DNA of 44,417 nt. Origin: a virus. Below are positions 1 to 30,321 of this stretch, one piece after another; position 1 is the stretch's first letter, and every line of letters begins with the position of its first letter. Both the position numbers and the translations under genes were made by a program. The notes under the pieces were generated by a model that saw only the letters and a program-made list of their open reading frames with translations, was not told the origin of the DNA and made no database searches. The stretch covers positions 1 through 44,417 of IMG/VR virus record IMGVR_UViG_3300042374_000171, one strand, 5' to 3'.

Positions 1-81
1 TCCATAAGTGTAGGGGTGGCTTATGTATTTATCCCATGCCGCATCCGTCTCTGGTGTAGGTTTATCGTTTACGATATTCAT
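1..81 (-). CDS. Partial small early protein (N-terminus only)
   Basis: An ATG at 81..79 opens 27 codons that run off the window edge without a stop. The peptide begins MNIVNDKPTPETDAAW. The TPETD stretch resembles the N-terminus of the protein at 2229-2549 (MNNTPTPETDD), so the two may be related. The start overlaps the stop of the upstream gene (78-290). Copy 1 of the dispersed 14-bp palindrome encodes residues 3-7. Function unknown. Confidence 0.55.
   Translation of the reverse strand, partial: MNIVNDKPTPETDAAWDKYISHPYTYG
63..76 (-). repeat. Dispersed 14-bp palindrome, copy 1
   Basis: Sense strand TATCG-TAAA-CGATA, inside the first codons of the partial gene 1-81 (IVND). Confidence 0.9.
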
Positions 82-290
82 GGTTTTTTGAATTGAATTT
101 CATCTAACATATCTGATGGGTCTTGATCGCCATTTGCCATAGTTTCAATCCATCTTGCAGGGTTAATGGTGGCGGTGTGCGCCCAGCCTTCACTTGTCAA
201 TTTTTCTTCGTGCGCTTCATCTACTGTTAAACATTTTATCTTACCTTCTTTGGCGTAGATAAAAAGATATGGTGCTATAATTATTTTCAT
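78..290 (-). CDS. Small early protein, unknown function
   Basis: The frame is open from 317, but the ATG at 290..288 overlaps the TGA of the upstream gene in an ATGA junction, as at most junctions in this operon. I choose that start, giving 70 residues beginning MKIIIAPYLF. It is a soluble-looking protein with an acidic C-terminal half (DQDPSDMLDEIQ) and no recognised motif. Confidence 0.6.
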   Translation of the reverse strand: MKIIIAPYLFIYAKEGKIKCLTVDEAHEEKLTSEGWAHTATINPARWIETMANGDQDPSDMLDEIQFKKP

Positions 291-538
291 AGATTGATTA
301 ACATCTTCTTTGCCCATTCTGGGGTATTCTCATCTACTTTCACTGCCCAGTGGCCTTCTACTGATTTAGTCATAGAGAGTGCTTTTACTGGTTTAATACT
401 ACTTTGTTTAGAAGTAGTAATTACTTCTTTGGTTGAGAACCTTTCCCCACAAGAACAAAGCCTCCTCCTTGCCACTGTGCCATCTCTTTTTCGGCTATTG
501 ATGACTTCAGTAGGTGATTTACACTTCGGGCAATTCAT
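287..538 (-). CDS. Stand-alone NrdR-like zinc ribbon protein
   Basis: This 83-residue protein starts MNCPKCKSPTEV and continues with NSRKRDGTVARRRLCSCGERFSTKE. The order C-x2-C, basic RRR stretch, C-x-CGxRF matches the N-terminal zinc ribbon of NrdR, the repressor of ribonucleotide reductase genes. The ATP-cone domain that follows in NrdR is absent; the rest is about 45 residues without a motif. A nucleic-acid-binding regulator is likely by family; its target is unknown. It overlaps its neighbours by 4 and 20 bases in the minus-strand early operon. Confidence 0.7.
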   Translation of the reverse strand: MNCPKCKSPTEVINSRKRDGTVARRRLCSCGERFSTKEVITTSKQSSIKPVKALSMTKSVEGHWAVKVDENTPEWAKKMLINL

Positions 539-704
539 TTTTTTTCTTAGGTCTTCCAGCGCAATCGTATTGTTTCATGCCTCTTTTTTCAAAGAAGTCT
601 TCACAAGCTTTATTGATTTCTTTTGATCGTAGTGGATACTTCCATCCTACTCGACCATCATCTAGATCAATATTACCTTCTATGTCTTTGCCGTTGATCT
701 TCAT
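519..704 (-). CDS. Small early protein, unknown function
   Basis: The frame is open from 767, but the ATG at 704..702 overlaps the TGA of the GIY-YIG gene (ATGA junction), giving 61 residues beginning MKINGKDIEGNIDLD. It is charged, with a C-terminal basic stretch (GRPKKKNE). The 3' end overlaps the zinc ribbon gene by 20 bases. No family recognised. Confidence 0.55.
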   Translation of the reverse strand: MKINGKDIEGNIDLDDGRVGWKYPLRSKEINKACEDFFEKRGMKQYDCAGRPKKKNELPEV

Positions 705-1342
705 TTCATTGATTTTCTTTTTTCTCTGTAATATTGAGTTTTGCTTGTTGCTCCAGCTAAAATCCAAGGTTCAATGCTGTAATTATATGGAAGCAATGTA
801 ATATTTTTATCTCCTATTTTTTGAGCTTTTATGATATTGCTTGTTTGAAGTATTCCATGATTTCTTCCAATGTCTCTTCTTTTAAACCATCTGGATACTA
901 TCGCATTTTTAACGCCAAAACGTTTTGATACACAAGTAAGGCTATTAAACTCTTCTATTTTACCATCACTATATGTGAATATGTATTTATTCCTATATTG
1001 TGATTCTGCAATTTTTCTTTTATGATCTTCAGAAAACTTTAATCCAGCCATTGGTGCTGATGCACTCTTGCAGAAGTTTATGCAGTTTTCGTGGGATGTG
1101 TGTGCATCTAAATACTTTTGCTCAAAAGCAATAGTTGAGTGTGGAGAACAATACTTCACAACCTCAAATATAAGTGATTCTTCACCATATTTGTTAAAGA
1201 TTCTTTGGAGTCTATGATTCCTGTGTTTTTGTGAACGCAATTTGTTAATGTGATTTTTGAAACGAGATTGCAAGTTTACGCTACTCCCGTAGTAGTAATG
1301 ACCATTTGCAGAACAAGTAATCTTGTATACCCCAGAGTTCAT
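701..1342 (-). CDS. GIY-YIG homing endonuclease (Seg-like)
   Basis: 213 residues. The N-terminal GIY-YIG nuclease domain is visible as GVYKI (residues 4-8) and YYYGSS (about 16-21), followed by the Arg of SRFKNH. A NUMOD3-type DNA-binding segment lies near residues 98-115 (GLKFSEDHKRKIAES), as in free-standing Seg endonucleases of phages. A C-terminal segment (SLTCVSKRFGVKNAIVSRWFKRR) resembles a NUMOD1/HTH module. The gene is more AT-rich than the neighbouring small genes and sits in the operon with 4-base overlaps, consistent with a selfish insertion. It is not inside an intron that I can see. Confidence 0.88.
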   Translation of the reverse strand: MNSGVYKITCSANGHYYYGSSVNLQSRFKNHINKLRSQKHRNHRLQRIFNKYGEESLIFEVVKYCSPHSTIAFEQKYLDAHTSHENCINFCKSASAPMAGLKFSEDHKRKIAESQYRNKYIFTYSDGKIEEFNSLTCVSKRFGVKNAIVSRWFKRRDIGRNHGILQTSNIIKAQKIGDKNITLLPYNYSIEPWILAGATSKTQYYREKRKSMK

Positions 1343-1578
1343 TATTTCTTACTAACTTTCCCGACGCATTTCCATTTTTCCCTACTTAAGTTGTTTGCTG
1401 TATTGGGATTGTTTTGTTGTTCTTTTGATAAACGTTTTTTAATCCCGTAACTTCGCGCACAATAACTTGACCCTTTGGCCGTCCCCGGACTAATTGTAGC
1501 ACCTTTCTGACCATACTTCACAGTCTTAGTCCTGCCAGTCTTTGGGTTGACTACTTTTTTTGAGAACCTCTTTTCCAT
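1342..1578 (-). CDS. Small basic phage protein, unknown function
   Basis: 78 residues, rich in Lys, Arg, Gly and Ser, beginning MEKRFSKKVVNPKTGRTK. The order of a basic N-terminus, TVKYGQKG, SYCARSYGIKKR and a C-terminal KWKC resembles small basic proteins common in phage genomes, but I cannot assign a named family with certainty. Its ATG overlaps the stop of 1578-1724 (TAATG), and its stop overlaps the ATG of the GIY-YIG gene in the same way. Confidence 0.6.
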   Translation of the reverse strand: MEKRFSKKVVNPKTGRTKTVKYGQKGATISPGTAKGSSYCARSYGIKKRLSKEQQNNPNTANNLSREKWKCVGKVSKK

Positions 1579-1724
1579 TACTTTTTCTTTGCAGTTTTTG
1601 CTGATTGTTTAAACGCTTTGGCAGTTGGTGCGCCCTTGCTGCCAACTTTCCTCATCTTCTCACCGCTACCCGCTGCGATGCGTTTCCTTTTTTCGTTAAT
1701 ATTTTTGTAAAGTCCAGTTTTCAT
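1578..1724 (-). CDS. 48-residue basic phage protein (KTGLY family)
   Basis: This short gene encodes MKTGLYKNINEKRKRI followed by AAGSGEKMRKVGSKGAP and a Lys/Ala tail. The KTGLY-N-I-N-x-KRKRI and GSKGAPTAKAF pattern is recurrent in small proteins of many tailed phages; I know of no established function. Its ATG at 1724..1722 overlaps the TGA of the upstream gene and its TAA overlaps the downstream ATG, so it is an integral member of the operon. Confidence 0.75.
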   Translation of the reverse strand: MKTGLYKNINEKRKRIAAGSGEKMRKVGSKGAPTAKAFKQSAKTAKKK

Positions 1725-1906
1725 TTTTTCTTAGACATTCCTGCGCGTGATAGTGCAATAGCCAATGCTTGTTTACGGCTCTTAGCCATAGGTGCTTTCT
1801 TCGGGCCTTTAGGGTTCACTCCAGCCTTGAGAGTTCCACGCTTGTATTCGCCCATGACTTTAGCTATCTTTGCAGTTTTAACTGCTTTTGTTGTTGGTTT
1901 TTTCAT
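1721..1906 (-). CDS. DUF6496-like small basic phage protein
   Basis: 61 residues. The core KIAKVMGEYKRGTLKAG, followed by SRKQALAIALSRAGMSKKK, is the pattern of the DUF6496-type small phage proteins (KVMxEFKxGTLKSG, SRKQAIAIALSEAG). The function of that family is not established. It is coupled to both neighbours by ATGA overlaps and stands in a run of three consecutive very basic small proteins. Confidence 0.75.
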   Translation of the reverse strand: MKKPTTKAVKTAKIAKVMGEYKRGTLKAGVNPKGPKKAPMAKSRKQALAIALSRAGMSKKK

Positions 1907-2232
1907 AATGATTCCATCCCATCTCTGAGAAGTTTAAAAAATGTATCTGATGACATTGTAACTTTCCAAGGTTTACTATTCTTCTTTGAAGCCACTGCCC
2001 AAGCAATGCCATTAGCATCTCGCTCGGCCTGCTCACAAGCCTTATCTAAATTTAAATTCTGAACACACTTTACTTCAAAGTGGAGTTTACCCTTCAATTC
2101 CTCACAGACTACATCTGGCGAGTCTTGTCCTCCTGCGAATTGCTGTCCTCGTTTAGCAGTGTAGCCTTCAGCGCGGAGTTGATCTCGCCAAGCCCTTTCA
2201 CCTCTTGCTCCTTTAGCTCTTGAGTTGATCAT
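1903..2232 (-). CDS. PD-(D/E)XK nuclease, Holliday junction resolvase-like
   Basis: The start is the ATG at 2232..2230, which overlaps the TGA of the upstream gene, giving 109 residues beginning MINSRAKGARGERAW. Motifs match the phage/archaeal resolvase-like PD-(D/E)XK fold: basic GARGERAWRDQL helix, AKRGQQFAGGQDSPDVV with the first acidic residue, and HFEVKCVQ as the E-x-K pair. Likely role: cleavage of branched DNA in replication or before packaging. This is inferred from motifs and from its place beside the helicase operon. Confidence 0.75.
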   Translation of the reverse strand: MINSRAKGARGERAWRDQLRAEGYTAKRGQQFAGGQDSPDVVCEELKGKLHFEVKCVQNLNLDKACEQAERDANGIAWAVASKKNSKPWKVTMSSDTFFKLLRDGMESL

Positions 2233-2549
2233 TTCGCGCCCTCCAATTTTCCGCAAATCCACTCGCTACGAGGCGGTGGCAGCTCACCTACGCAGCCAGC
2301 GTCGATCCACTGGGCCATGTCATCCCCGTGGGTTGCTGACCAGTTTTTTGATGCTAGCCCCCATGTTCGAACGCGAAGCAATGCCTCTCGTAACTTGGCG
2401 TTTTGCTCCCTCGCCTCGTCGCGCTCGCGTTCCAGCTTTCTACAATCATCAATAGGAACTGCTCTAAAACCAAAAACGCCTTCAATTACTGAATCAATGT
2501 AGCATATGATTGCAAGGTCATCCGTCTCTGGTGTTGGTGTGTTATTCAT
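2229..2549 (-). CDS. Coiled-coil early protein with TPETD N-terminus
   Basis: 106 residues. The N-terminus MNNTPTPETDD resembles that of the partial gene at 1-81. A short coiled coil follows (CRKLERERDEAREQNAKL), an arrangement common in accessory early phage proteins of unknown function. A candidate promoter at 2556-2584 places the transcription start at about this ATG, so the mRNA may be leaderless here. Confidence 0.65.
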   Translation of the reverse strand: MNNTPTPETDDLAIICYIDSVIEGVFGFRAVPIDDCRKLERERDEAREQNAKLREALLRVRTWGLASKNWSATHGDDMAQWIDAGCVGELPPPRSEWICGKLEGAK

Positions 2550-2740
2550 GGGAGCATACTATCTACATCTTGTATCTGTGTCAACATTTTTTTATCAGAA
2601 AAATACTCATGGTAGATTTTCATCCCCTCATTCCAATAATTCTCTGCTATGCAATACCTTTCTTTGTCCTCAGACTCCCAAATATCCATTGCATATTTGA
2701 AAAACTTCATGGTTTTTCCGTAGGCTTGGTCGGTTGTCAT
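2546..2740 (-). CDS. Small early protein, unknown function
   Basis: 64 residues, beginning MTTDQAYGKTMKFF, rich in aromatic and acidic residues and probably helical. Its start overlaps the helicase stop (TAATG) and its end overlaps the next gene by 4 bases. The DNA for its last residues also carries the candidate promoter for 2229-2549. No family recognised. Confidence 0.6.
   Translation of the reverse strand: MTTDQAYGKTMKFFKYAMDIWESEDKERYCIAENYWNEGMKIYHEYFSDKKMLTQIQDVDSMLP
2556..2584 (-). promoter_or_regulatory. Leftward promoter before 2229-2549
   Basis: On the minus strand TTGACA (2584..2579), 17 bases, TAGTAT (2561..2556). The ATG at 2549 is 6 bases beyond the -10 box, so a leaderless transcript is expected. 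The bases upstream (aaaaaaatgTTGACAC) are identical to those of the promoter at 41415. Confidence 0.6.
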
Positions 2741-3972
2741 TAGTAAACCTCCTCAAGTCTTGAGATATCCCCGCGCATCACAATATCCGTAGAATAATTC
2801 CTCGCGCCACGGCGGTTCTTCTTGATCGTCAGCCTACTCTTCTCCTTAATGTGTTCGATATACACTACTTGGTCAGAGTGCATTCCAATTGCCCGTGATT
2901 CGCGCAGTCTTCCTTCGTCATTAAGCTGAGAAGCTGTAAGCATAATCGAGTTGTTTTTCAACGCAGCTACCTTTAACCGCCTTGCAATCTCGGAAATTTG
3001 ACTTTCTCTACCCTCCGCGCCATCAAATGCAATGATTTGTAGGTAATCTACTACGATTACATCTGCCCGATTTTCGCCTACATATCGGTTTATATTAGCC
3101 TCAATCTCGTCAATTTCAGCTATTCCATCCACGATTTCTAGTGGCAACTGATGCAGTTTAAGTAGTGCAGAACTGATTGCTTGGAGTTCGTTCTTGTTTG
3201 CTGTCTTGTAATCCTCTGGTTCTCTCACGGGATAGCCTGCGATATTGCAAGCCATGCGGGTCAGGATGTCTTTCGCTTTCATTTCGAGGCTGAAGAAGAG
3301 GACTGACTTTCCTTCCAGTAGGTTTGCGAGTGCCGCTTGGACTAGGTAGATTGATTTTCCTCCACCTGTCTCAGATGCCACCGTCATCATCTCGCCTTTG
3401 TGCATCCCACCCTTGAGTGCGCGATCCACTTTGAGTAATCCAGTAGGGTAAAAATCCTTTACTGCTTTTCCTTCCATCTCATCAATGATTTCGATGATGA
3501 GGTCTTTGACTGGCTTTACTTTTGATGTGCGATCTTCTGCGGACTTCATTATCGTTTCCGATAATTCCTTTAAATTCGTCTTGCCTGTCCGTAGATTTGG
3601 CTCTTCTTTCTCCATGAGGGTAATGACATCGCGGTAGGCCTTCGTGCGGTGCAGGTGCTTCCGGTAGTCATCTGCCATGTCTTGGCAAACCTTACCAGAG
3701 GCCACCTTCATCGTAGCGAATATTTCGTGAATCGCATCCTCTCCACCCGCAGCTTCTAATTGTCCAGTTGCTTCCAGTTCTGCGATGGCAGAAAACGGGC
3801 AGCAAACCCCTGTCCGCTGGTGAACCCCTTGGAGGGCATTAAAAACGATTCTGTGAGCTGGTATGGCAAAGTAATCACTATCCCATGTTTGTTGGGAAAG
3901 GATGTTTCTGTCGATTGCGATGAGCGACAACACTGCCGCTTCACTCTTTCGTGCTATTGGGACTTTTTTCAT
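2740..3972 (-). CDS. DnaB-type replicative helicase
   Basis: 410 residues, close to the usual DnaB length. The N-terminal DnaB domain covers about residues 5-110 (SEAAVLSLIAIDR, PAHRIVFNAL). The RecA-like core has Walker A SETGGGKS near residue 204, FFSLEM after it, Walker B VIVVDYLQII, and ASQLNDEGRLRES followed by the KNRRGA segment typical of DnaB C-termini. It should unwind DNA at the phage replication fork as a ring. It lies downstream of the replication-initiation-like gene at 5517-6371. Copy 2 of the dispersed palindrome is inside the coding sequence (SETI). Confidence 0.93.
   Translation of the reverse strand: MKKVPIARKSEAAVLSLIAIDRNILSQQTWDSDYFAIPAHRIVFNALQGVHQRTGVCCPFSAIAELEATGQLEAAGGEDAIHEIFATMKVASGKVCQDMADDYRKHLHRTKAYRDVITLMEKEEPNLRTGKTNLKELSETIMKSAEDRTSKVKPVKDLIIEIIDEMEGKAVKDFYPTGLLKVDRALKGGMHKGEMMTVASETGGGKSIYLVQAALANLLEGKSVLFFSLEMKAKDILTRMACNIAGYPVREPEDYKTANKNELQAISSALLKLHQLPLEIVDGIAEIDEIEANINRYVGENRADVIVVDYLQIIAFDGAEGRESQISEIARRLKVAALKNNSIMLTASQLNDEGRLRESRAIGMHSDQVVYIEHIKEKSRLTIKKNRRGARNYSTDIVMRGDISRLEEVY
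3550..3563 (-). repeat. Dispersed 14-bp palindrome, copy 2
   Basis: Sense TATCG-GAAA-CGATA in the helicase gene (SETI). Pairing extends to 7 bp (ATTATCG/CGATAAT). Confidence 0.9.
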
Positions 3973-4619
3973 TTGGGTTTTGTTTTTTCAATTATGTATC
4001 CTGCAAATTCTCCGATTCGGAAGAACTCAATTCCTCCATCAACCTCAGATTGATCAAGTGGACGCTGAACTCCGCTCAATGAAAGTTCTTTATCCAAAAT
4101 ATCAGATGGAGATGCGCCACTCTTCAGCTTCCATTCTGATGTCATCCTTCGGAATACTGTCGATGCGTATCCTTGAACCGATTCAAACTTTTCCACTACA
4201 ATAATACATCCTCCATATTCTGTTGATGCTTTTAGTTTCTGTAAAAGTTCTGACCTTCTTTTTTTTGAAATAAACATCAGGGAAAGAAAGCATATAGCTA
4301 CTGAAAATTCTTTGTATTCAAAATCTACTGCATCCGAAATCTGGAGCAATCCGCCTCCATCATATTTTTGCGCCATCTCATTGCTTTCTTCTATGGCTAT
4401 TAGTTTTGCTCCCCTTTGTTCTATTAAAAACTTTGTAGCCCTCCCTATATTTCCAGTGCTTGCTCCTATATCATAGATTATTCCATTTCTGGAAAGATAA
4501 TTCCTTGTTATGGAAACAACAGCACTTGTAGCTAAATCATACCAAGGCAACTGCTCACGCACATGGTTGTCAAAGTTTTCCGCTATCCAATTATTTTTGA
4601 ATGTCCAGTCTTTCATCAT
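3969..4619 (-). CDS. Class I SAM-dependent methyltransferase, CmoA-like
   Basis: 216 residues. A SAM-binding motif I is seen as IIYDIGASTGNIG, followed by LIAIEESNEM as motif II and FSVAICFLSLMF in the motif IV region. The stretch before motif I (LPWYDLATSAVVSITRNYL) and the overall order recall CmoA-type methyltransferases that act on wobble-position tRNA uridine. The substrate cannot be read from sequence; small molecule, nucleic acid and lipid remain possible. Two consecutive ATGs begin the gene. It overlaps the cytosine methyltransferase gene by 29 bases. Confidence 0.7.
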   Translation of the reverse strand: MMKDWTFKNNWIAENFDNHVREQLPWYDLATSAVVSITRNYLSRNGIIYDIGASTGNIGRATKFLIEQRGAKLIAIEESNEMAQKYDGGGLLQISDAVDFEYKEFSVAICFLSLMFISKKRRSELLQKLKASTEYGGCIIVVEKFESVQGYASTVFRRMTSEWKLKSGASPSDILDKELSLSGVQRPLDQSEVDGGIEFFRIGEFAGYIIEKTKPK

Positions 4620-7722: not shown

Positions 7723-7730
7723 AAGCAATC

Positions 7731-7759
7731 ATAGTATCAAAAAAATATTGACTTGTCAA
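7731..7759 (-). promoter_or_regulatory. Leftward promoter of the divergent pair
   Basis: On the minus strand TTGACA (7759..7754), 17 bases, TACTAT (7736..7731), then 8 bases to the ATG at 7722. Its -35 box abuts that of the rightward promoter. Confidence 0.7.
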
Positions 7760-7761
7760 TA
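7746..7761. promoter_or_regulatory. Operator-like palindrome between divergent -35 boxes
   Basis: TATTGAC-TT-GTCAATA is a 16-bp dyad that contains both -35 boxes. A protein bound here would block both promoters; the adjacent HTH protein is the obvious candidate. Confidence 0.6.
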
Positions 7762-7776
7762 GTCTTGGTTTATTTT
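7748..7776 (+). promoter_or_regulatory. Rightward promoter of the divergent pair
   Basis: TTGACT (7748-7753), 17 bases, TATTTT (7771-7776), then 8 bases to the second ATG at 7785 of the HTH gene. Upstream agtatcaaaaaaat is shared with the promoter at 41415. Confidence 0.65.
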
Positions 7777-7778
7777 TC

Positions 7779-8192
7779 ATGGAAATGAAACATCCATTAG
7801 AAGCGGCCTATGATACTTGCATGAGTGCTTACGAGCAATCACGCACAGTTCGTTCTCTTGGACGCAAGACTTTCGCAAACCAACTTCGTGAGACACGGAG
7901 AGCATTGAAATTGACTGTCAGAGAACTTGGAGATAAGATCGGCGTGACTGGTTCTTTAATCAACCAGATTGAAGTGAACTCCAAAAGTATTTTAAAGAAA
8001 GAACAAGTAGATAAGGTCATCGAATTATGCACGTCTTCCTTGAAGCCGAAGAGGGCTTATACGTTCTCAAAGTCAGTCCCTACGCAGCAGGACGACCAAC
8101 TGCCATGCATGAGCGAGGAAAACCATTCCCTGCCAGCTACAGAACAGAATACAAAGAGTTGGAGTTGGCCGCCATCGGACTTCAAGAGCTAA
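7779..8192 (+). CDS. XRE-family HTH regulator
   Basis: 137 residues in the open frame. A lambda-repressor-type HTH lies at about residues 30-70 (FANQLRETRRALKLTVRELGDKIGVTGSLINQIE). The part beyond about residue 88 is Ser/Pro/Gln-rich, overlaps ORF 8027-8269 in another frame and looks less protein-like. The -10 box is only 2 bases before the first ATG, so the ATG at 7785 (MKHPLEAAYD) is the more likely start. By position it is the candidate regulator of the divergent promoters and possibly of the palindrome family; this is inference. Confidence 0.75.
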   Translation: MEMKHPLEAAYDTCMSAYEQSRTVRSLGRKTFANQLRETRRALKLTVRELGDKIGVTGSLINQIEVNSKSILKKEQVDKVIELCTSSLKPKRAYTFSKSVPTQQDDQLPCMSEENHSLPATEQNTKSWSWPPSDFKS

Positions 8193-18169: not shown

Positions 18170-18183
18170 TATCGTAACCGATA
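18170..18183 (+). repeat. Dispersed 14-bp palindrome, copy 8
   Basis: TATCG-TAAC-CGATA between 17893-18168 and 18191-19117, ending 7 bases before the start. Confidence 0.9.
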
Positions 18184-21142: not shown

Positions 21143-21673
21143 TTATTTCTCCAAAGAATGACAAGGAATACACATAGGCACAACATCGAGCCAATGTTCA
21201 ATATTATAGCCATTATGGTGATGATATTGTTGTGCTTGATTCCCGCAATTTATACATTGCAATGTGGAAACCTTGGGGATTTTATTTCTGGCAATAGCAT
21301 TATTAACTTTATTTCTTGCTTTATATTTATCAGGGAATTTTTGTCTTTGCTGTATTGTGGATTTTCTTCTGTGCTGATTGAGTCTTTCAATCTGATCTTG
21401 TGTCATATTTTTAAAACACCTCAACCTGATCTCTCTAACTTTTTGTGCATTTCTTTTAGCCCAAGAAACACATCTTTTCATATGTTCTTGTTTGTGTGTT
21501 TCGTAATATTTCTGGTAAGATTCTTTTCTCCCATCTGGATTATCTCTACACGATTTAATGCTTGCAATTCTATGGCAATGCTTACATCTGTTAGAAAATC
21601 CATCTTTCGATCTGGAGGATTTAACAAATTCGTTCAATTCTTTTTCGGTTTTACATCTGCAACAAGTCTTCAT
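21143..21673 (-). CDS. HNH endonuclease inserted in the lysis cassette
   Basis: 176 residues, antisense to its neighbours. An N-terminal zinc-finger-like part (CCRCKTEKELNEF ... RCKHCHRIAS) is followed by a basic helical region and a C-terminal HNH core (CINCGNQAQQYHHHNGYNIEHWLDVVPMCIPCHSLE). It separates the holin-like genes from the endolysin. Opposite orientation and AT-rich composition suggest a homing insertion. Confidence 0.85.
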   Translation of the reverse strand: MKTCCRCKTEKELNEFVKSSRSKDGFSNRCKHCHRIASIKSCRDNPDGRKESYQKYYETHKQEHMKRCVSWAKRNAQKVREIRLRCFKNMTQDQIERLNQHRRKSTIQQRQKFPDKYKARNKVNNAIARNKIPKVSTLQCINCGNQAQQYHHHNGYNIEHWLDVVPMCIPCHSLEK

Positions 21674-21689
21674 AGATGAAGAGTAATAT

Positions 21690-22232
21690 ATGATGATTCC
21701 AAAGTCAAGACCTCAACAAGCTAAAGAAAAATCTTTAGCTATGGCTATAAAAGCAGGAATAGAAGACAGAGTTGTTTTAATCGGTATTAGGGGGTATTAT
21801 TCTGAAACATTTCAACCATCAGGCAACCAAAGAAACATTTATGATGATGCCATTATCCTACTATCACCATCGTGCCATGCTACTTTTAACGCTAATACTG
21901 ATCCGTCGATTTTTAAAAAAGGCATTGCTTCATTATTACCGGGCGTTCATCGCTACAAGAAAGGTAAGCACGGAATTAGTAAACCGGGTGGCGGGTATCC
22001 GGCACTTAGACCTGCTACGCCAAATGAGACTCTTCCCGTCTTTAGAGACTCTGAGGGTGAGTCGCTTGGGGTCGCGATTAATATCCACAAAGGGGGATAT
22101 AATACAACCTCATCGCTTGGTTGCCAAACTATCTACCCCGCCCAATGGGAAGGATTCATCAACCTCGTCTATTCAGAAATGAGTAGATACAACCAAAAAA
22201 CGATTCCATATCTATTAACAGAATTATCGTAA
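21690..22232 (+). CDS. Endolysin-like protein (L,D-transpeptidase/DUF5675-like)
   Basis: 180 residues from the first of two tandem ATGs. The core INIHKGGYNTTSSLGCQTIYP places His133 and Cys145 as in the compact His...GC motif of DUF5675/L,D-transpeptidase-like domains, which act on peptidoglycan peptides. Spacing is shorter than in classical YkuD enzymes. Its place after the holin-like genes supports a lysis role. The stop codon lies inside copy 9 of the palindrome. Confidence 0.6.
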   Translation: MMIPKSRPQQAKEKSLAMAIKAGIEDRVVLIGIRGYYSETFQPSGNQRNIYDDAIILLSPSCHATFNANTDPSIFKKGIASLLPGVHRYKKGKHGISKPGGGYPALRPATPNETLPVFRDSEGESLGVAINIHKGGYNTTSSLGCQTIYPAQWEGFINLVYSEMSRYNQKTIPYLLTELS

Positions 22233-22238
22233 ACGATA
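22225..22238 (+). repeat. Dispersed 14-bp palindrome, copy 9
   Basis: TATCG-TAAA-CGATA. Its TAA is the endolysin stop; the phosphoesterase ATG follows 4 bases later. Confidence 0.9.
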
Positions 22239-22242
22239 AAAT

Positions 22243-23136
22243 ATGAAAAAATCAAAGTGGAATTTCAAACAAGTAAGTAGAAATGTTCACGTTATTGAAA
22301 TGCACCTCCCGAGGGTTGGAGATGAACAATGGGTTTTGCTTCAGAGTGATGTTCACTGGGACAATCCCAAGTGTGACAGAGCAAAATTTAAAAAGCATTT
22401 GGATTTAGCCTTGGCTCGAAATGCCCCTGTAATTGATGCAGGGGATTTTTTTTGTGCAATGCAAGGCAAGTATGACAAGAGAAGTAGCAAAAAAGATTTG
22501 CGCCCAGAACACGCGACTGGAAATTATTTAGATTCGCTAGTTGAAACGGCAGCAAAGTATCTTGAGCCATACAAAAAAATACTCACTGTAAGGGCGGCGG
22601 GAAATCATGAGAGTTCAATTCAGAAAAACTGCGAAACTGATCTTGGTGAAAGATTAGTTGAAAGACTGAGAAGTAGTGGTGGGATAGCTCGCAGAGGTGG
22701 GTATTCTGGGTTTGTTAGATTTTCAATTTATGGTAATAAAACAAATGAAAAGTTGGCTTCAACTCAAGGATACAAACTTTGGTATTTCCACGGGAGTGGT
22801 GGGGGTGGGCCTGTAACCAGAGGGGTTATACAAACAAATAGGCAAGCAGTGTATGTTGCTGATGCTGATTTTGTTGTATCGGGTCACACGCACGACTCTT
22901 GGACAGTTCCGATTCAGCGAATCAAATTGAATCAAAAAGATATTATTGAACAATTCAGACAAACTCATATCAAAACTGGAGGATACAAAGAAGAGTTTGT
23001 GGATGGATATGGTGGATGGCATGTTGAGCGCGGTGGCCCTCCGAAGCCAACGGGTGCGTATTGGATTAGATTTTATTTTGATAGATACGAAAATAATAAA
23101 AAAATTTACGACTACGAAATTATAGAAGCCAAATGA
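22243..23136 (+). CDS. Calcineurin-like metallophosphoesterase
   Basis: 297 residues. Family motifs are in order: DVH (D36, H38), GDFFC (D68), GNHES (N121, H122) and GHTHD (H215, H217), with a further His at 183. These bind two metal ions and hydrolyse phosphodiesters or phosphomonoesters. Substrate is unknown. The position between endolysin and lipoprotein genes is not that of a replication nuclease such as SbcD. Copy 9 of the palindrome lies 4 bases before its start. Confidence 0.85.
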   Translation: MKKSKWNFKQVSRNVHVIEMHLPRVGDEQWVLLQSDVHWDNPKCDRAKFKKHLDLALARNAPVIDAGDFFCAMQGKYDKRSSKKDLRPEHATGNYLDSLVETAAKYLEPYKKILTVRAAGNHESSIQKNCETDLGERLVERLRSSGGIARRGGYSGFVRFSIYGNKTNEKLASTQGYKLWYFHGSGGGGPVTRGVIQTNRQAVYVADADFVVSGHTHDSWTVPIQRIKLNQKDIIEQFRQTHIKTGGYKEEFVDGYGGWHVERGGPPKPTGAYWIRFYFDRYENNKKIYDYEIIEAK

Positions 23137-23495
23137 AATTCATACTCGCCATAGCTATACTTGCTCTTGCTGGATGTGTTACACCTCCAGTAGCCGAGCC
23201 AGAGTTTGCAGGACGCTACAAAAACGCTTGTTTGCCCGAAGCAATAGCAATGACGCAAGCACTAAAGAAAAGCGATATACAAGCCCGTGTGCTGCGAATC
23301 CAGACTAAGGACTTCGGTCATGCAGTCTGCGTTTACCTTTACCCAACTGGCGCGAATAAACTCTACGTCTGGGATAGCTATTGGAAATCAGTCAATCTTC
23401 GCGCATGGTATAACGATCCTACAAGCATAGCTAATGCTTGGCTTGATTATACCTACCCTAAAATTTCTCTTGTCAGCGCAAACTTTCTTGATTAA
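23133..23495 (+). CDS. Lipoprotein with Cys-His-Asp triad, copy A
   Basis: 120 residues. A signal peptide ends in the lipobox LAGC (Cys15). The mature part keeps NACLPEA (Cys33), GHAVC (His63) and WDS (Asp81), the order expected for a transglutaminase-like cysteine peptidase fold. It is clearly paralogous to 26465-26827. A surface lipoprotein made late could block superinfection or modify the envelope; this is inference. Its ATG overlaps the phosphoesterase stop, and copy 10 of the palindrome follows. Confidence 0.7.
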   Translation: MKFILAIAILALAGCVTPPVAEPEFAGRYKNACLPEAIAMTQALKKSDIQARVLRIQTKDFGHAVCVYLYPTGANKLYVWDSYWKSVNLRAWYNDPTSIANAWLDYTYPKISLVSANFLD

Positions 23496-23497
23496 AT

Positions 23498-23511
23498 TAT
23501 CGTAAACGATA
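23498..23511 (+). repeat. Dispersed 14-bp palindrome, copy 10
   Basis: TATCG-TAAA-CGATA between lipoprotein A and the tailspike, ending 2 bases before the tailspike start. Confidence 0.9.
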
Positions 23512-23513
23512 TT

Positions 23514-25727
23514 ATGAGTTGCTCAAATTCCAGAAGTTCTAAATGTAACCCATGCGGCCCAAGTGCGGACGCGATGAATGAGATTGCCAATAAAGCTGCA
23601 TACTATGCTCGCATAGCTCAACACGCAGCAGATCAAGTAGAGGGATTTGAATCACTTTACTTGGGAGCAAAAGCAACCGCACCAACTGTAGATAACGAAG
23701 GCAATCCACTTGTTGTTGGAGCTTTGTATTTCAATACTACAGACGACACAATGTATGTTTGGGACGGAAGTATTTGGGTAGATTTTGTAGCTGGGTTTGA
23801 CGAGAATACCAATTACCAAGTCACAGGCACTCCAACCGCTCGCAATCTTGTTACTCGCGGAGCAGATATAATCAATGTCAAAGATTTTGGCGCGACAGGC
23901 AATGGAACCACTGACGATACTTCCGCAATTCAAGCCGCAATCACTGCTGCGCCAGCAGGAGCAGCAATTTACTTCCCAAGGGGAACATATCGTTTATCCA
24001 GTATTGAAATAACAAAAGATGTTTCAATTTACGGAGAAGGCAAAAATGCCACTACTTTGAGCTTACGGAATCCGAGTGATTTTAGACTTTTCTTCATAAA
24101 AACAAGTTGGATTTCATTTGAATTGTTTGATTTGACAATGCGTGATCCGCATGGGTTTAGAATTCTTGACAATACAACGCAAGAGCAAACAACTGGAATC
24201 ACTAATATTAATCGTCCGACATATAATCCATATGAATTTCCATTAGATAATTTTTATGTTAGAAATGTAGATTTCATTGATTTTTATGATGGAATTGAAA
24301 CAAGTGGATTGAAAGGCGACATTTCTGGTTGTAATTTTATTTATACTTATGGAAGTTGGTCTATTGGTGGAAACTGGGACGCACCAAATGGTGGTGGTGA
24401 TCACCCATTTGTAGGAGTTTTATGTTCTTTTTGGAATTTGAATTTTACAAACAACTACTACGATGGATTGCTCGATTCAACATTCGCCAATGTTAATCCA
24501 TTGACTTCTACATATCCTTTGTCAAAAAGAGCATCAGATGGGATGATATATGCTCAATCATTGAGAACCTCAGTAACAAGTTTGAGATACGCTGAAACTA
24601 ATGGGATTAAAAGCGTTCAAACGATTACAAATAATGTTTGCAAAAACAATGCGATTGAAGGAATTCAAGTTAATGCTTCAATAAAAAATCAAACAGAAAA
24701 AGATAATTATTACATAAATATCTCAAATAATGAAGTTATTGGAGTTAGCAAATACTATGGCAATCCACCAACCCAAACAGCAAATTGGGCAGTTGGATCG
24801 CTTGCAATTTTGGTGGATTGTTATTATTTTAGACCAGCAATAAATATATCAGACAATAAAATAGATAATAATATAACAGGTATTTCTGTTAATAATATTA
24901 GACCTAATGATATTCCATTGTCTTCATTTACTGGTATTTGGTCATTGCAAGGTCAAACAAAAATTACCAACAATTCAATTTCTGGATGCCAAACTGGAAT
25001 TGGATCAAGTTGGAATCTTCCAGAAGATGTTATTTCAAATAATTCAATTTCTTGCAACTCAAGAAATGCACAAAGATTATTTGAAGGGTTCAACCCAACA
25101 GTATCTTCAAATTGGACGACTGCACAATTGATAGGAATAAATATTGTTAACGGAAATCCAACAGTTTCATATAATAATCTTTCTGCAAATTACAATTTTG
25201 AGCAGACAAAAACAATTTCTGGGAATTCTTCAAATGTGTTGACATTAAATAATGCAACAGGAATTTCAACAAGTGGAAGCGGAACTATTCTTTATGGTGG
25301 AGTCGCTTGGTCTTTTCCAATAACAAATGTTTCTGGTAATAATGTTACATTGAACTTTGATTTTTGGATTGGTTTTAATGCATACTGGTCAACAAGAGGA
25401 GGGGTTAATATTAATGGACTTTCATTTTATTATAGTCCATACGGAGAAGGGGCAATTAGAACGAGTTCTATTTGGGTTGTATTAAATGAAGGTGGAGGAG
25501 GGAATGGATGGGTTACCCCGACTGCTCTTGATAAAGTTTACAACAATACTGCTTCAAATTTTCTCCGAGATTTTTCTGTTTGGAATGGTTCTGTCACATT
25601 TGAAAAACAAATTTATTTTTCAAATATGACATCAAATAACATTTATCAAAAAACATATTTAATACAATTTTTTGGAGCAACTTCTTCTAATGCAATTTTA
25701 AATGGTGGATTTTATTTAGACATTTAA
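23514..25727 (+). CDS. Tailspike with pectate-lyase-type beta-helix
   Basis: 737 residues. A Cys-rich start (MSCSNSRSSKCNPCGP) and a helical stretch lead to a short fibre domain (VVGALYFNTTDDTMYVWDGS, about 68-90). Residues 120-190 match the pectate lyase superfamily entry domain (INVKDFGATGNGTTDDTSAIQ ... IYFPRGTYRLS). The rest is Asn/Ser/Ile-rich and repetitive, as in right-handed beta-helices. It probably binds and cleaves a surface polysaccharide. The helix-coding part is markedly more AT-rich than its surroundings, suggesting acquisition. Confidence 0.85.
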   Translation: MSCSNSRSSKCNPCGPSADAMNEIANKAAYYARIAQHAADQVEGFESLYLGAKATAPTVDNEGNPLVVGALYFNTTDDTMYVWDGSIWVDFVAGFDENTNYQVTGTPTARNLVTRGADIINVKDFGATGNGTTDDTSAIQAAITAAPAGAAIYFPRGTYRLSSIEITKDVSIYGEGKNATTLSLRNPSDFRLFFIKTSWISFELFDLTMRDPHGFRILDNTTQEQTTGITNINRPTYNPYEFPLDNFYVRNVDFIDFYDGIETSGLKGDISGCNFIYTYGSWSIGGNWDAPNGGGDHPFVGVLCSFWNLNFTNNYYDGLLDSTFANVNPLTSTYPLSKRASDGMIYAQSLRTSVTSLRYAETNGIKSVQTITNNVCKNNAIEGIQVNASIKNQTEKDNYYINISNNEVIGVSKYYGNPPTQTANWAVGSLAILVDCYYFRPAINISDNKIDNNITGISVNNIRPNDIPLSSFTGIWSLQGQTKITNNSISGCQTGIGSSWNLPEDVISNNSISCNSRNAQRLFEGFNPTVSSNWTTAQLIGINIVNGNPTVSYNNLSANYNFEQTKTISGNSSNVLTLNNATGISTSGSGTILYGGVAWSFPITNVSGNNVTLNFDFWIGFNAYWSTRGGVNINGLSFYYSPYGEGAIRTSSIWVVLNEGGGGNGWVTPTALDKVYNNTASNFLRDFSVWNGSVTFEKQIYFSNMTSNNIYQKTYLIQFFGATSSNAILNGGFYLDI

Positions 25728-25739
25728 TAATTTTAAATT

Positions 25740-26468
25740 ATGGCAACTACGACAATAGCGAATCCAATTTTTATCGGAACAGGAATTCCCTTGGTTCCTT
25801 CTACTGCTCCATTGCAAGTTCAAAGATGGAATCTGCCGATTACTGGTTCTGTTTATACATTTACTGGGAGTGCATCAGCAGCATCTACTCAAACTCCAGT
25901 ATGGACAAGGTTGAATACTGGTGGAACAGCAGGATCAAGTGCATTGTATCGCGCTAATCCCAACCAAGGCATATATTTTGCTAAAGGTGGAGGAAACTCA
26001 ATGGGCATACAATTCAGCCGCCCCGTCTGGCTTATCTGGCAAGGTCAGATGAGTGCTGTTTCAACTGATCGCATTCGCATCCAACTCGGTGGAGTTGATG
26101 CTGCAAGCACCACAGTTGGGCCAATGACACCAACAAATGCTGCATTTTCTGGTCTTGGATTTTTAATTGAGGGTGGGGCAATCAAACTTGAAACAATTAA
26201 TACGCCAGCAGGAGTTGCGACACTGAACACTTCTGCAACACTTGCCACACATACACCTTTCAGGTTGAGTCTTAAAGCCTATAGCGATGGACTTGGAAAT
26301 GTTAAGGTGTATGTCAATGAGTCACTTGTTTCTACATTGGCAATTGGCCCAACTCAAGACACAAGCAATTCAATATGTCAATTGCGAGTCTCTGTTGAAA
26401 ATACAACCGCAGCAAACGCCGCATTAGTTGACCTTATTCAAGACCAACTATCCGTAATCGTCGAATGA
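25740..26468 (+). CDS. Virion/tail-associated beta-rich protein
   Basis: 242 residues, almost without Cys, rich in Thr, Ala, Ser and Ile. Segments such as VYTFTGSASAASTQTPVW and PFRLSLKAYSDGLGNVKVYVNESLV suggest a jelly-roll or LamG-like fold. Its place after the spike and its overlap with the second lipoprotein gene suggest a receptor-binding or spike-capping role. Not recognised as a named family. Confidence 0.6.
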   Translation: MATTTIANPIFIGTGIPLVPSTAPLQVQRWNLPITGSVYTFTGSASAASTQTPVWTRLNTGGTAGSSALYRANPNQGIYFAKGGGNSMGIQFSRPVWLIWQGQMSAVSTDRIRIQLGGVDAASTTVGPMTPTNAAFSGLGFLIEGGAIKLETINTPAGVATLNTSATLATHTPFRLSLKAYSDGLGNVKVYVNESLVSTLAIGPTQDTSNSICQLRVSVENTTAANAALVDLIQDQLSVIVE

Positions 26469-26827
26469 GATCACTTCTCGCCATTGCTATCGTTGCACTT
26501 GCTGGATGCACTACGCTTCCAGTTGAGCAACCATCGTTCGCAGGACGCTACAGGAATGCTTGTCTTCCCGAAGCAATAGCAATGGCGCAAGGACTCAAAG
26601 AAAAGTCGATACAGACCCGTGTGCTGCGAATCCAGACGAAAGACTGGGGTCACGCAGTCTGCGTTTACCTCTACCCAACTGGTGCAAACAAACTCTATGC
26701 TTGGGATTCATACTGGCAAAGCATCAACCTACGCGCATGGTTTGACAATCCAACCAGCATTGCAACAGCATGGCTCGACTATACGCATCCAAATTTAACA
26801 CTTGTCAACGCATCCTTCCTTGATTAA
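26465..26827 (+). CDS. Lipoprotein with Cys-His-Asp triad, copy B
   Basis: 120 residues, same length and layout as copy A: lipobox LAGC (Cys15), NACLPEA (Cys33), GHAVC (His63), WDS (Asp81). Most differences are conservative and the C-termini both end NFLD/SFLD. It too starts in the previous stop (ATGA) and is followed by a copy of the palindrome (11) that ends two bases before a gene with a Cys-rich N-terminus. The pair appears to be a duplicated module. Confidence 0.7.
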   Translation: MRSLLAIAIVALAGCTTLPVEQPSFAGRYRNACLPEAIAMAQGLKEKSIQTRVLRIQTKDWGHAVCVYLYPTGANKLYAWDSYWQSINLRAWFDNPTSIATAWLDYTHPNLTLVNASFLD

Positions 26828-26829
26828 AC

Positions 26830-26843
26830 TATCGTTAACGATA
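26830..26843 (+). repeat. Dispersed 14-bp palindrome, copy 11
   Basis: TATCG-TTAA-CGATA (perfect palindrome) between lipoprotein B and the tail fibre, ending 2 bases before the fibre start. Confidence 0.9.
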
Positions 26844-26845
26844 TT

Positions 26846-27604
26846 ATGAGCTACTGCACACCCTGCCCACCATGCGACACGGAATATCCGTTGTTGTGTG
26901 AACCACTTGAAACAACTGCCAATGGTAAACGATTGGTAGTGGAAGACTCTGCTGCTTGCCAGAAAACAATTCAGACTCCAGTAGCCCAACAAGTTTTGAA
27001 GACTGATGGTGCTGGTAATTTGACTTGGACAAACGGAGCGAGCGGAACTGTTTTAAGGAAAGATTCAACCGGACTGCTTGAGTTTGCTACACTCAATAGT
27101 GTTCTTCAATCTGGCCCAGTTGATCTTGGTAGCCAACCATTGACTACTACTGGAGCGGTTAGCGTTGGATCACTTGCATCAACTGGGGCAGTGACCGCAG
27201 CAAGTGTAACGGCATCTGGCGCGGTTACTGCAAATACATTAAATGTAATAAATACATCTGGATTGGGTTCTATAGAAGTAAGCGGAACTACAGGGGCATT
27301 TATTGATCTTAAAGCTCCAGTAACGGATGATTACGATTTTAGAATTGGATCAGATGTTGCTGGAGGTTATATTACAACAAGTGGAACAAGTGTAAATGGA
27401 CATATTAGATTGCTTCCAAATACCACGGGTTCTGCAAATGTAGGAATAAATGTAGATAATCCGCAAAGAAAACTTCATGTAAACGGAATAGTTCGTTTGC
27501 AAGGGCTATCTACTTACGCCAACAACGCTGCTGCCATTTCTGGTGGATTGGTTGCTGATGATGTTTACAAAACCTCTACTGGTGAACTTCGTATTGTTGT
27601 ATAA
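26846..27604 (+). CDS. Tail fibre protein
   Basis: 252 residues. The N-terminus MSYCTPCPPCDTEYPLLCEP is Cys-rich like that of the tailspike and may be an anchor. The middle is a repetitive beta-type segment (TTGAVSVGSLASTGAVTAASVTASGAV). The C-terminal NVGINVDNPQRKLHVNGIVRLQGL is a pattern common near fibre C-termini. It runs directly into the next gene (stop TAA, ATG overlap). Confidence 0.7.
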   Translation: MSYCTPCPPCDTEYPLLCEPLETTANGKRLVVEDSAACQKTIQTPVAQQVLKTDGAGNLTWTNGASGTVLRKDSTGLLEFATLNSVLQSGPVDLGSQPLTTTGAVSVGSLASTGAVTAASVTASGAVTANTLNVINTSGLGSIEVSGTTGAFIDLKAPVTDDYDFRIGSDVAGGYITTSGTSVNGHIRLLPNTTGSANVGINVDNPQRKLHVNGIVRLQGLSTYANNAAAISGGLVADDVYKTSTGELRIVV

Positions 27605-29610
27605 TGCCAGCCGAAGGATCAGTCTTTGATGGATTCACAAGTATCATCGCGCAAGACGCAGATACTCATCCATCGTATTTACCAGAGTCTGTAGTATCAG
27701 AGTCGGTAAATAGGACATTCCGAGGTGGCATTAACCGGACAAGGCCAAGCATTCGGAACATCTCAATTATCGCTGGAGACGGACAAACCGAGACTATCGT
27801 TAACGATATTCTTGGTGGCAGCTTCCAAGGTGCGTATCCATATCGTTCAACCAACTTGAGAACAAACGATGGTATCCTGCTATCGGTATCTGGGATTATC
27901 TACTTTCTGAAGATGGTAAACAATCGGGCGTTTGCCTACAAGATTATCGAGGGTAACGATCCGGGCATGATGCACACATGGTTTGTGCAAGCCGAAGATC
28001 GGGCGTATATCCAAAATGGCTACCAAAATGCCATAGCATGGGATGGAGTATTAGGAACGCTGACAGCAAGCGAAATCCAAAATGGAGACTACTGCGAGAT
28101 TGTATCAGTTGGGACTACCAACTTTACCTTGATCGGTGCGCCATCCAATACGATTGGAGTTAAGTTCACAGCAGTTATTACAGACACTCAAAGAGGAACG
28201 GGAACAGGAACAGTCAAGCTACCTGCCTACCGACTGAACCCATACTTGGCAAAGATGCCGATTGGAACGATCATGGAATATGCCTTCGGGCGAGTCTTCG
28301 TAGCTGATAGGCTCAATCAAATCTACGCATCTGACATCATCTATGGTGGTGGATTCACCGACACAAAGAATACGGAGAACTTCACAGAGATAGGATACTG
28401 GGCAGAAGGTGGCGCGTTCTCTACTCCAGCCATGATGGGGAATATCACAGGGATGAAGGTCATGCCACAGATCGGAACCAACCTCCGTGGGCAAGGTGAG
28501 CTTGTAGTCCTTACTGGTAACGGAGCATTCTCAATGGATGTCTCTCTACCAAGAAGCCAATGGAATACATCGAATATCCAACGCATCTCACTCCTTGGGC
28601 GAGGATGCACATCGCCATACCTTGGATTAGCCAACTCTGAGCTTTGGTTTAGATCACATGATGGTTGGGCATTCTACTCTAATAGCCAATCTGAATTTGC
28701 AAGATACTTCTCGCTTCGTAAACTTTCGAGGGAAGTAAACAAGTGGGTCGAGAATGACACTCCTTGGCTGAAGCAATTCGCTTCTACAATGTTTTTTGAT
28801 AACTACATCATCAGCACAGTTTCGCCACAGACCTACCGCGCAGAAGGTGTAGAAGGACTGAACAGGTATCATAGGGGCATGGTAGTTCTCGATCTTGACC
28901 AATCTTCTTCACCTGCACCAGACGCACAACTTTCTTTCCGTTGGAATGGAATTTGGACAGGCATTAGACCAACACAACTTCTGACTGCACTGATCCAAGG
29001 TGAAAAACGGGGATTCGGATTCTCATTCGACAAAGACAACAAGAACCGACTTTACGAGTTCACAATAGCTCAAGGCGACGACTATGGGCCAAATGGAAGC
29101 AGGCAGATTGAATCCTTCTTCACAACTGGCAGGTATGATTTCAACCGAAGCGGGGCTACCAACAAGTTCCTCCGTAAAAAAATCACTGGTGGAGAAATGT
29201 GGATGAGTGAGATTAAAGGTGAAGTAGATAGCTATGTCGATTTCCGCGCCGACTCTAATCCTTGCTGGTCAGAACTGAAAGTGCCTACGACATTCGGGTG
29301 TGATCCATGCTCGCCTAAAGTAACTGAATGCTTCCCACAACGGGGCGGTAATCGCTATAAACGCTACAAGTTTAACACACCAGACCCAAGTGAGTGCAAT
29401 GACTTGGCAGGCATCCCATCAGTAGAAGGAAGCGAGTTCCAAATCAAAGTCAACCTAACCGGAGCAGCTACAGTTGACCGAGTGCGACTGATGGCAAACA
29501 TCAAAAACAACGATGACTCTCCGGTTGGCGACTGCCCAGAAGAAAACCAAGAATGCGAACCATTTTTGTGTTGCCAAGAAAAATATTGGAACTACAATAT
29601 CGTAAATTAA
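27604..29610 (+). CDS. Tail tubular / stabilisation-type protein
   Basis: 668 residues. The opening (VFDGFTSIIAQDADTHPSYLPESVVSESVNRTFRGG) and beta-propeller-like segments resemble tail hub or nozzle proteins of podoviruses (tubular protein B or P22 gp10 type). The C-terminal part is Cys-rich (CDPCSPKVTECFP; CPEENQECEPFLCC). Copy 12 of the palindrome is in frame as TIVNDI. Assignment is by pattern and neighbourhood. Confidence 0.6.
   Translation: MPAEGSVFDGFTSIIAQDADTHPSYLPESVVSESVNRTFRGGINRTRPSIRNISIIAGDGQTETIVNDILGGSFQGAYPYRSTNLRTNDGILLSVSGIIYFLKMVNNRAFAYKIIEGNDPGMMHTWFVQAEDRAYIQNGYQNAIAWDGVLGTLTASEIQNGDYCEIVSVGTTNFTLIGAPSNTIGVKFTAVITDTQRGTGTGTVKLPAYRLNPYLAKMPIGTIMEYAFGRVFVADRLNQIYASDIIYGGGFTDTKNTENFTEIGYWAEGGAFSTPAMMGNITGMKVMPQIGTNLRGQGELVVLTGNGAFSMDVSLPRSQWNTSNIQRISLLGRGCTSPYLGLANSELWFRSHDGWAFYSNSQSEFARYFSLRKLSREVNKWVENDTPWLKQFASTMFFDNYIISTVSPQTYRAEGVEGLNRYHRGMVVLDLDQSSSPAPDAQLSFRWNGIWTGIRPTQLLTALIQGEKRGFGFSFDKDNKNRLYEFTIAQGDDYGPNGSRQIESFFTTGRYDFNRSGATNKFLRKKITGGEMWMSEIKGEVDSYVDFRADSNPCWSELKVPTTFGCDPCSPKVTECFPQRGGNRYKRYKFNTPDPSECNDLAGIPSVEGSEFQIKVNLTGAATVDRVRLMANIKNNDDSPVGDCPEENQECEPFLCCQEKYWNYNIVN
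27795..27808 (+). repeat. Dispersed 14-bp palindrome, copy 12
   Basis: TATCG-TTAA-CGATA in the tubular-type gene (IVND); 18 bases are identical to copy 11 and its flanks. Confidence 0.9.
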
Positions 29611-30307: not shown

Positions 30308-30321
30308 TATCGGAAACGATA
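30308..30321 (+). repeat. Dispersed 14-bp palindrome, copy 13
   Basis: TATCG-GAAA-CGATA, ending 6 bases before the adaptor gene. Pairing extends to ATTATCG/CGATAAT. Confidence 0.9.

What the first reader, a model, noticed from the sequence alone, without database searches (positions are those of the whole stretch)
23133..26843. Duplicated lipoprotein module flanking the tailspike
Two 120-residue lipoproteins with the same Cys33-His63-Asp81 triad lie 3 kb apart. Each starts in an ATGA overlap, is followed by a palindrome and then, two bases later, by a fibre or spike gene with a Cys-rich N-terminus. The module lipoprotein + palindrome + Cys-rich fibre is therefore repeated. A transglutaminase/cysteine-peptidase-like lipoprotein linked to receptor-binding genes could block receptors after infection or process the spike.
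Basis: partly seen in the sequence, partly recalled or inferred. Interest (0 to 1): 0.7.

Follow-up and report, generated by a model that had tools for sequence, protein, structure and literature searches.

The report
Two phage lipoproteins, no duplicated module
A phage carries two related membrane-anchored, enzyme-like lipoproteins beside its host-recognition genes, probably to alter the envelope of the infected cell; they are separate acquisitions rather than a duplicated module, and the 'palindrome' after them is one of about 19 copies of an oriented DNA signal that punctuates the genomes of a whole uncultured phage clade.

Summary
The pieces are real, the module is not. P0001 (23133-23495) and P0002 (26465-26827) are 120-aa lipoproteins, 75% identical, with ATGA starts and a palindrome 2 nt before the next ATG. 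Homology stops at the gene edges: flanks are about 35% identical and the two fibres are unrelated. P0002 is closer to lipoproteins of other phages (92%) than to P0001, so it is a second acquisition. Cys33/His63/Asp81 and the lipid Cys15 are invariant in 43 aligned relatives. AlphaFold2 (pLDDT 89) and Foldseek point to a papain/transglutaminase-like fold, but no hit is formally significant. 46 of 67 copies adjoin fibre-type genes; 17 lie elsewhere, some among replication genes. Best guess: an envelope-acting enzyme, probably superinfection exclusion (about 0.4, untested). The palindrome is the surprise: T-TATCG-KWWM-CGATA-A occurs 19 times in the window and about 0.4/kb across a clade without cultured relatives. 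Its arms are invariant, it follows transcription direction (241:53), it crowds just upstream of start codons, and it is absent from related phages that carry the lipoprotein. It resembles stoperators but is palindromic and found in phages with no detected integrase. A universal XRE protein is the candidate binder; the link is confounded by shared ancestry.

The parts
23133..23495 (+). lipoprotein P0001, 120 aa; lipid Cys15, putative Cys33-His63-Asp81 triad
   Evidence: AlphaFold2 pLDDT 88.6
26465..26827 (+). lipoprotein P0002, 120 aa, from a different sub-lineage (92% identical to L030, 75% to P0001)
23498..23511 (.). palindrome TATCGTAAACGATA, 2 nt before the spike ATG
26830..26843 (.). palindrome TATCGTTAACGATA, 2 nt before the fibre ATG
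22225..22238 (.). same palindrome just before the metallophosphoesterase ATG (22243)
27795..27808 (.). same palindrome inside the 27604-29610 gene; the relative L021 has it at the same offset from the gene start
30308..30321 (.). same palindrome 7 nt before the 30328 ATG
18170..18183 (.). same palindrome just before the 18191 ATG
63..76 (.). same palindrome, the site nearest the left end; the remaining 12 sites start (14-mer) at 3550, 5502, 7339, 9226, 11385, 15551, 35504, 36872, 37185, 39822, 41370 and 43789
23514..25727 (+). tailspike, pectate-lyase-like, 737 aa, Cys-rich N-terminus
   Evidence: PF12708 6e-19; phrog_38058 tail fibre 7e-16
25740..26468 (+). 242-aa gene upstream of P0002; homologues precede the lipoprotein in L025 and L033 too
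26846..27604 (+). fibre, 252 aa, Cys-rich N-terminus; not homologous to the spike
22243..23136 (+). metallophosphoesterase upstream of P0001, ATGA overlap
   Evidence: PF00149; phrog_7339
21690..22232 (+). probable endolysin (phrog_3000, function unknown in PHROGs); assignment by position and motif only
7779..8192 (+). XRE-type helix-turn-helix protein, candidate reader of the palindrome (binding untested)
   Evidence: HTH_3 1.6e-5; distribution

Best explanation
Two separate things meet here. (1) The lipoproteins are two members of a phage family of small, exported, lipidated proteins with a papain/transglutaminase-like Cys-His-Asp core. [quoted passage not shown] There it is inferred to act as an enzyme on an envelope target, and the most likely use is superinfection exclusion, by modifying or disabling the receptor or entry machinery. 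The two copies belong to different sub-lineages and came in separately; both are under purifying selection. (2) The palindromes are not part of that unit. They belong to a genome-wide, transcription-oriented set of about 19 copies of the 16-bp signal T-TATCG-KWWM-CGATA-A, most likely operators or transcription roadblocks read by a dimeric phage-encoded regulator. Shown: sequence, distribution, conservation, orientation, predicted topology. Inferred: localisation, catalysis, target, biological role, and the palindrome's reader.
For: Lipoproteins: 73 viral loci plus 2 MAG loci. C15, N31, A32, C33, P35, E36, A37, H63, A64, W80 and D81 invariant in 43 sequences. In the model Cys33 opens helix 33-46, His63 is at the start of strand 62-69 and Asp81 ends strand 77-81, the order expected of transglutaminase-like proteases. 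Best Foldseek hits are arylamine N-acetyltransferases, ubiquitin-specific proteases, a josephin-type protease and CPR-C4 (probability up to 0.98); a phage COG3672 transglutaminase-like proteinase model scores 0.95. Members hit Tox-PL-2, Transglut_core3 and Transglut_core weakly. dN/dS 0.20 between the copies. 46 of 67 copies adjoin fibre-type genes, as SE lipoprotein genes do: Llp lies next to and downstream of pb5 (PMC9586334). Copies in replication-type regions (L055, L070) fit an early host-directed role. Palindrome: 41 strand matches against 5.6 expected. 367 distinct sites in 1.11 Mb, 28% within 10 nt upstream of a start against 1.8% of controls, orientation 241:53, also biased inside genes (96:17). 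Upstream of starts 155 exact arms against 3 one-mismatch sites. Pairing stops after the 16-bp core.
Against: No fold hit reaches E<0.001 and no Pfam gathering score is met. Catalysis, localisation and host are unknown. Known SE lipoproteins are small non-enzymatic binders (PMC9586334, PMC12685063). 37 of 67 copies are also within four genes of lysis-type genes, so a lysis role is open. For the palindrome, sites in related phages are not independent observations, the XRE link is confounded by shared ancestry, and the window's XRE promoter carries no copy of the palindrome in its -35/-10 region.
Confidence: 0.42

Rival explanations
1. Lysis or envelope-breaching accessory: a lipid-anchored cysteine enzyme that cuts peptidoglycan peptides or the links between outer membrane and cell wall during lysis.
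For: 37 of 67 copies lie within four genes of lysis-type genes; window P0001 follows the probable endolysin and the metallophosphoesterase. Papain-like folds include peptidoglycan hydrolases such as NlpC/P60 (established knowledge).
Against: 17 copies lie near neither fibre-type nor lysis-type genes, several among small replication-region genes. Lysis roles look filled by neighbouring small membrane/lipoprotein ORFs (20638, 20814, 20969) and the 21690 gene. No match to a peptidoglycan-hydrolase family.
Confidence: 0.22
2. Spike or fibre maturation: the lipoprotein processes or anchors the adjacent receptor-binding protein.
For: 46 of 67 copies adjoin fibre-type genes; the P0002 type recurrently follows the 25740-type gene or a spike (L025, L033).
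Against: Sec-exported and lipidated, whereas fibres assemble in the cytoplasm; found in contigs without adjacent fibres; the neighbouring fibres are of many unrelated kinds.
Confidence: 0.07
3. True tandem duplication of a lipoprotein + palindrome + fibre module.
For: A 300-nt direct repeat at 77% identity and the same stop-palindrome-ATGAG junction.
Against: Flanks unrelated, fibres unrelated, P0002 closer to other phages' proteins, palindrome genome-wide and absent in lipoprotein-bearing relatives.
Confidence: 0.04
4. The palindrome is an RNA hairpin (translational operator, processing site or terminator) rather than a DNA operator.
For: Sits where a Shine-Dalgarno sequence would be; oriented A-rich tetraloop in the sense strand.
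Against: Arms invariant with no compensatory or wobble variants beyond chance; no pairing beyond the 16-bp core; no U-tract. Sequence-specific RNA binding is not excluded.
Confidence: 0.25

Closest known systems
T5 Llp / Cor / Rtp45 superinfection-exclusion lipoproteins (PMC9586334, PMC12685063)
   Same: Small phage lipoprotein gene adjacent to receptor-binding or tail genes; envelope-located
   Different: Those are about 6-8 kDa non-enzymatic binders; here about 106 mature residues with a conserved Cys-His-Asp core; no sequence homology beyond the signal peptide region (phrog_1119 E 0.09)
Papain/transglutaminase-like cysteine enzymes (Tox-PL-2 PF15643, Transglut_core PF01841, Transglut_core3 PF13471, COG3672, arylamine N-acetyltransferases)
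   Same: Order Cys (helix start), His, Asp on successive strands; weak convergent profile and fold hits
   Different: Below all curated cut-offs; lipid-anchored, single minimal domain, found in phage sequences with two MAG contigs as the only finds in the genome-contig scan
Stoperators of Cluster A mycobacteriophages (PMC9283540, PMC6550527)
   Same: About 20 or more sites across a phage genome, in short intergenic spaces, oriented with transcription; the stoperator reader is an HTH repressor
   Different: Here palindromic (5-4-5) with invariant arms, often inside genes, in phages with no detected tyrosine or serine recombinase; reader unproven

Membership tests
Papain/transglutaminase-like superfamily | Cys at the start of a helix, then His and Asp/Asn on following strands | tested here: met
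   DSSP of the model: Cys33 opens H33-46, His63 in E62-69, Asp81 ends E77-81
Papain/transglutaminase-like superfamily | Catalytic residues conserved across the family | tested here: met
   C33, H63 and D81 invariant in 43 sequences; retrieval patterns contained Cys or Asp but not His
Papain/transglutaminase-like superfamily | Significant profile or fold match | tested here: inconclusive
   Foldseek probability 0.94-0.98 but E 0.1-0.2; Pfam E 0.02-0.1, below gathering
Papain/transglutaminase-like superfamily | Enzyme activity | not testable with these tools
   needs a biochemical assay
SE lipoproteins (Llp/Cor type) | Signal peptide with lipobox Cys | tested here: met
   Cys15 invariant
SE lipoproteins (Llp/Cor type) | Gene next to the receptor-binding gene | tested here: met
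   46 of 67 copies; 17 copies are near neither fibre-type nor lysis-type genes
SE lipoproteins (Llp/Cor type) | Sequence homology to Llp or Cor | tested here: not met
   phrog_1119 E 0.093 for P0002, over residues 1-53 only
SE lipoproteins (Llp/Cor type) | Blocks superinfection | not testable with these tools
   experiment needed
Stoperators | Many sites across the genome | tested here: met
   19 in the window, 0 with the reversed control pattern
Stoperators | Oriented with transcription | tested here: met
   241:53; by class 84:11, 96:17, 61:25
Stoperators | Asymmetric 13-bp site | tested here: not met
   16-bp dyad-symmetric site with asymmetric centre
Stoperators | Temperate phage with an integration or partition system | tested here: inconclusive
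   no PF00589 or PF00239 match in 28 records; parABS not searched, some records are fragments
Stoperators | Bound by the phage repressor | not testable with these tools
   XRE present in 23 of 30 site-rich and 0 of 19 site-poor records, confounded by ancestry

The most novel reading that the evidence does not exclude
A large uncultured clade of 44-58 kb phages without detected integrases uses a strict, dyad-symmetric, transcription-oriented 16-bp signal, placed between stop and start codons and inside genes at about 0.4/kb, as a genome-wide roadblock or operator network read by a universal small XRE protein: a stoperator-like system that is palindromic and serves lytic rather than lysogenic control.
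Probability: 0.35. Interest if true: 0.75.

Novelty: new variant of a known kind. Interest (0 to 1): 0.55.

Why it matters
If the lipoproteins exclude superinfection enzymatically, they would add a catalytic kind of exclusion lipoprotein to the known binding kind, in a phage group that turned up no match among 50,697 public phage records.

Tried and rejected
Module duplication: rejected on flank identity, the protein tree and the distribution of the palindrome. RNA hairpin: less likely, since there are no compensatory changes and no extension of the stem. Host-derived signal: the pattern is at background level in 289 Verrucomicrobiota genomes (38 with a hit, mostly one each), although the host phylum is only a guess from one MAG contig (L087). 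Known PDB relatives by sequence: none. NCBIfam Sbal_3080 lipoprotein hits (27 of 43 members, best E 0.00045) start in the signal peptide and score far below the cut-off (15.6 bits for P0001 against 80); not taken as membership. XRE autoregulation through the palindrome: in the window the XRE promoter instead carries a conserved TTGACTTGTCAA, so binding of the palindrome by XRE is not established.

Full report
What was checked. The ORFs, overlaps, palindromes and Cys-rich fibre starts are as described. The window is a 44,417-base virus record. The lipoproteins share 75% of residues and 76% of nucleotides; dS is 0.89 and dN 0.18, so both copies are under purifying selection.

Why it is not a duplicated module. 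The similarity begins and ends with the lipoprotein ORF, the palindrome and the first bases of the next gene: the 60 bases upstream are 35% identical and the 90 bases downstream 34%, and the spike and fibre are not homologous. In a tree of 58 relatives P0001 sits with L021 and L026 (support 93/73) while P0002 sits with L033, L025, L027, L030, L031, L032 and L034 (support 90/93) and is 92% identical to L030. A second contig with two lipoproteins exists (IMGVR_UViG_3300044638_003204, copies 73% and 56% identical to P0001, about 7.6 kb apart). Having two is therefore not unique, and it can arise by separate acquisition.

What the lipoproteins are. Searches found 73 viral loci and two MAG loci. 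Cys15 (lipidation), Asn31-Ala32-Cys33, Pro35-Glu36-Ala37, His63-Ala64 and Trp80-Asp81 are invariant in 43 aligned sequences. The retrieval patterns contained the Cys and Asp stretches, so their invariance is partly selected; His was in neither pattern and is the unbiased test. With 43 sequences AlphaFold2 gives mean pLDDT 88.6 and pTM 0.79. Cys33 opens a helix and His63 and Asp81 lie on following strands, as in transglutaminase-like cysteine enzymes. Foldseek's best hits are arylamine N-acetyltransferases, ubiquitin-specific proteases, BpJOS and CPR-C4, and in the viral library a COG3672 transglutaminase-like proteinase. E-values are 0.06 or worse, so the fold is supported but not proven. Single members hit Tox-PL-2, Transglut_core3 and Transglut_core below cut-off. 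Only 2 of 241 Verrucomicrobiota genomes have a match, one of them the MAG locus already found, so in that phylum at least this is not a common chromosomal family.

Where they sit. Of 67 copies, 46 adjoin fibre-type genes, 37 have lysis-type genes within four genes and 17 have neither (clusters were assigned by reading representatives). In L055 and L070 the gene follows DnaB-type and replication genes, and in L060 it lies among small genes of a 217-kb contig. This mobility, like that of a moron, argues against a structural part and for a host-directed role. Known exclusion lipoproteins are also coded beside receptor-binding genes, for example Llp next to pb5 in T5 (PMC9586334), and Rtp45 binds LptD at the periplasmic side (PMC12685063). 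Those are binders, not enzymes. Exclusion by an enzyme is therefore the preferred but untested reading.

The palindrome. ATCGTWAACGAT with up to two mismatches gives 41 strand matches in the window against 5.6 expected; there are 19 sites of TATCG-N4-CGATA. Seven lie 0-14 nt upstream of a start codon: the 5502 (minus), 11412, 18191, 22243, 23514, 26846 and 30328 genes. A scan of IMG/VR for one 16-base version found 118 stretches and stopped at its limit. In 1.11 Mb of fetched sequence there are 367 distinct KWWM-spacer sites: 42% inside genes against 86% for random positions, 28% with a start within 10 nt against 1.8%, and the AA centre follows the direction of the nearest gene 241 to 53. The bias holds upstream of starts (84:11), inside genes (96:17) and elsewhere (61:25). 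Many of these are orthologous sites in related phages, so the counts are not independent; the window alone already shows the pattern. Upstream of starts, 155 exact arms stand against 3 with one mismatch. Pairing beyond the 16-base core is mostly at or below expectation. This favours sequence-specific recognition by a dimer over a generic hairpin.

Who reads it. Of 49 records, 30 have 9 to 28 sites and 19 have 0 or 1. The XRE protein of the window (7779-8192; HTH_3 1.6e-5) is found in 23 of the 30 and none of the 19 (Fisher 3.5e-8). Among the genomes fetched, those without XRE also lack the neighbouring terminase, which suggests fragments. Two genomes with diverged XRE (G009, G028) have less usual spacers. 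No tyrosine or serine recombinase was found in 28 records, so lysogeny is not indicated. Stoperators of Cluster A phages are the nearest known system: more than twenty sites, short intergenic spaces, orientation with transcription (PMC9283540; PMC6550527). They differ in being asymmetric and in serving temperate phages.

Placement. Neither terminase, portal-position protein (11412), XRE nor lipoprotein has a tblastn match in 50,697 phage records. The clade is uncultured and its host unknown; the one bacterial clue is a lipoprotein relative on a Verrucomicrobia MAG contig (L087), whose fetched stretch lacks the palindrome.

Verdict. Observation partly confirmed; interpretation partly supported; duplication rejected; enzyme-like exclusion lipoprotein the best guess; the palindrome network the most interesting by-product.

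Noticed in passing
window, 19 sites from 63 to 43802; about 30 of 49 viral records examined: Genome-wide oriented 16-bp palindrome T-TATCG-KWWM-CGATA-A; reader unknown
   Followed up: yes
L226 (G015) about 1230-4583: Dense cluster of the palindromes (about ten sites in 3.4 kb, some with non-standard spacers), some in intergenic stretches with repeated flanking sequence; possible regulatory hub
   Followed up: partly
window 7729-7778 and relatives: Nearly invariant promoter-like TTGACTTGTCAATAG...TTTATTTT upstream of the XRE gene, with its own palindrome at the -35 position
   Followed up: partly
IMGVR_UViG_3300044638_003204 (L030, L046): Another phage contig with two lipoproteins of this family, from different sub-lineages, about 7.6 kb apart
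   Followed up: partly
window 287-538 (-): NrdR-like zinc-ribbon protein (PF22811, 2.9e-10), conserved in most site-rich genomes
   Followed up: no
window 21143-21673 (-): Antisense ORF with a CxxC/HNH-like look between the small membrane-protein genes and the probable endolysin; possible homing endonuclease
   Followed up: no
window 701-1342 (-): ORF that reads like a GIY-YIG endonuclease (by eye only)
   Followed up: no
window 26846-27604 and relatives (cluster c3): Cys positions at the fibre N-terminus (C4, C7, C10, C18, C38) match those of the relative shown for the cluster, suggesting a metal-binding or disulphide anchor
   Followed up: no
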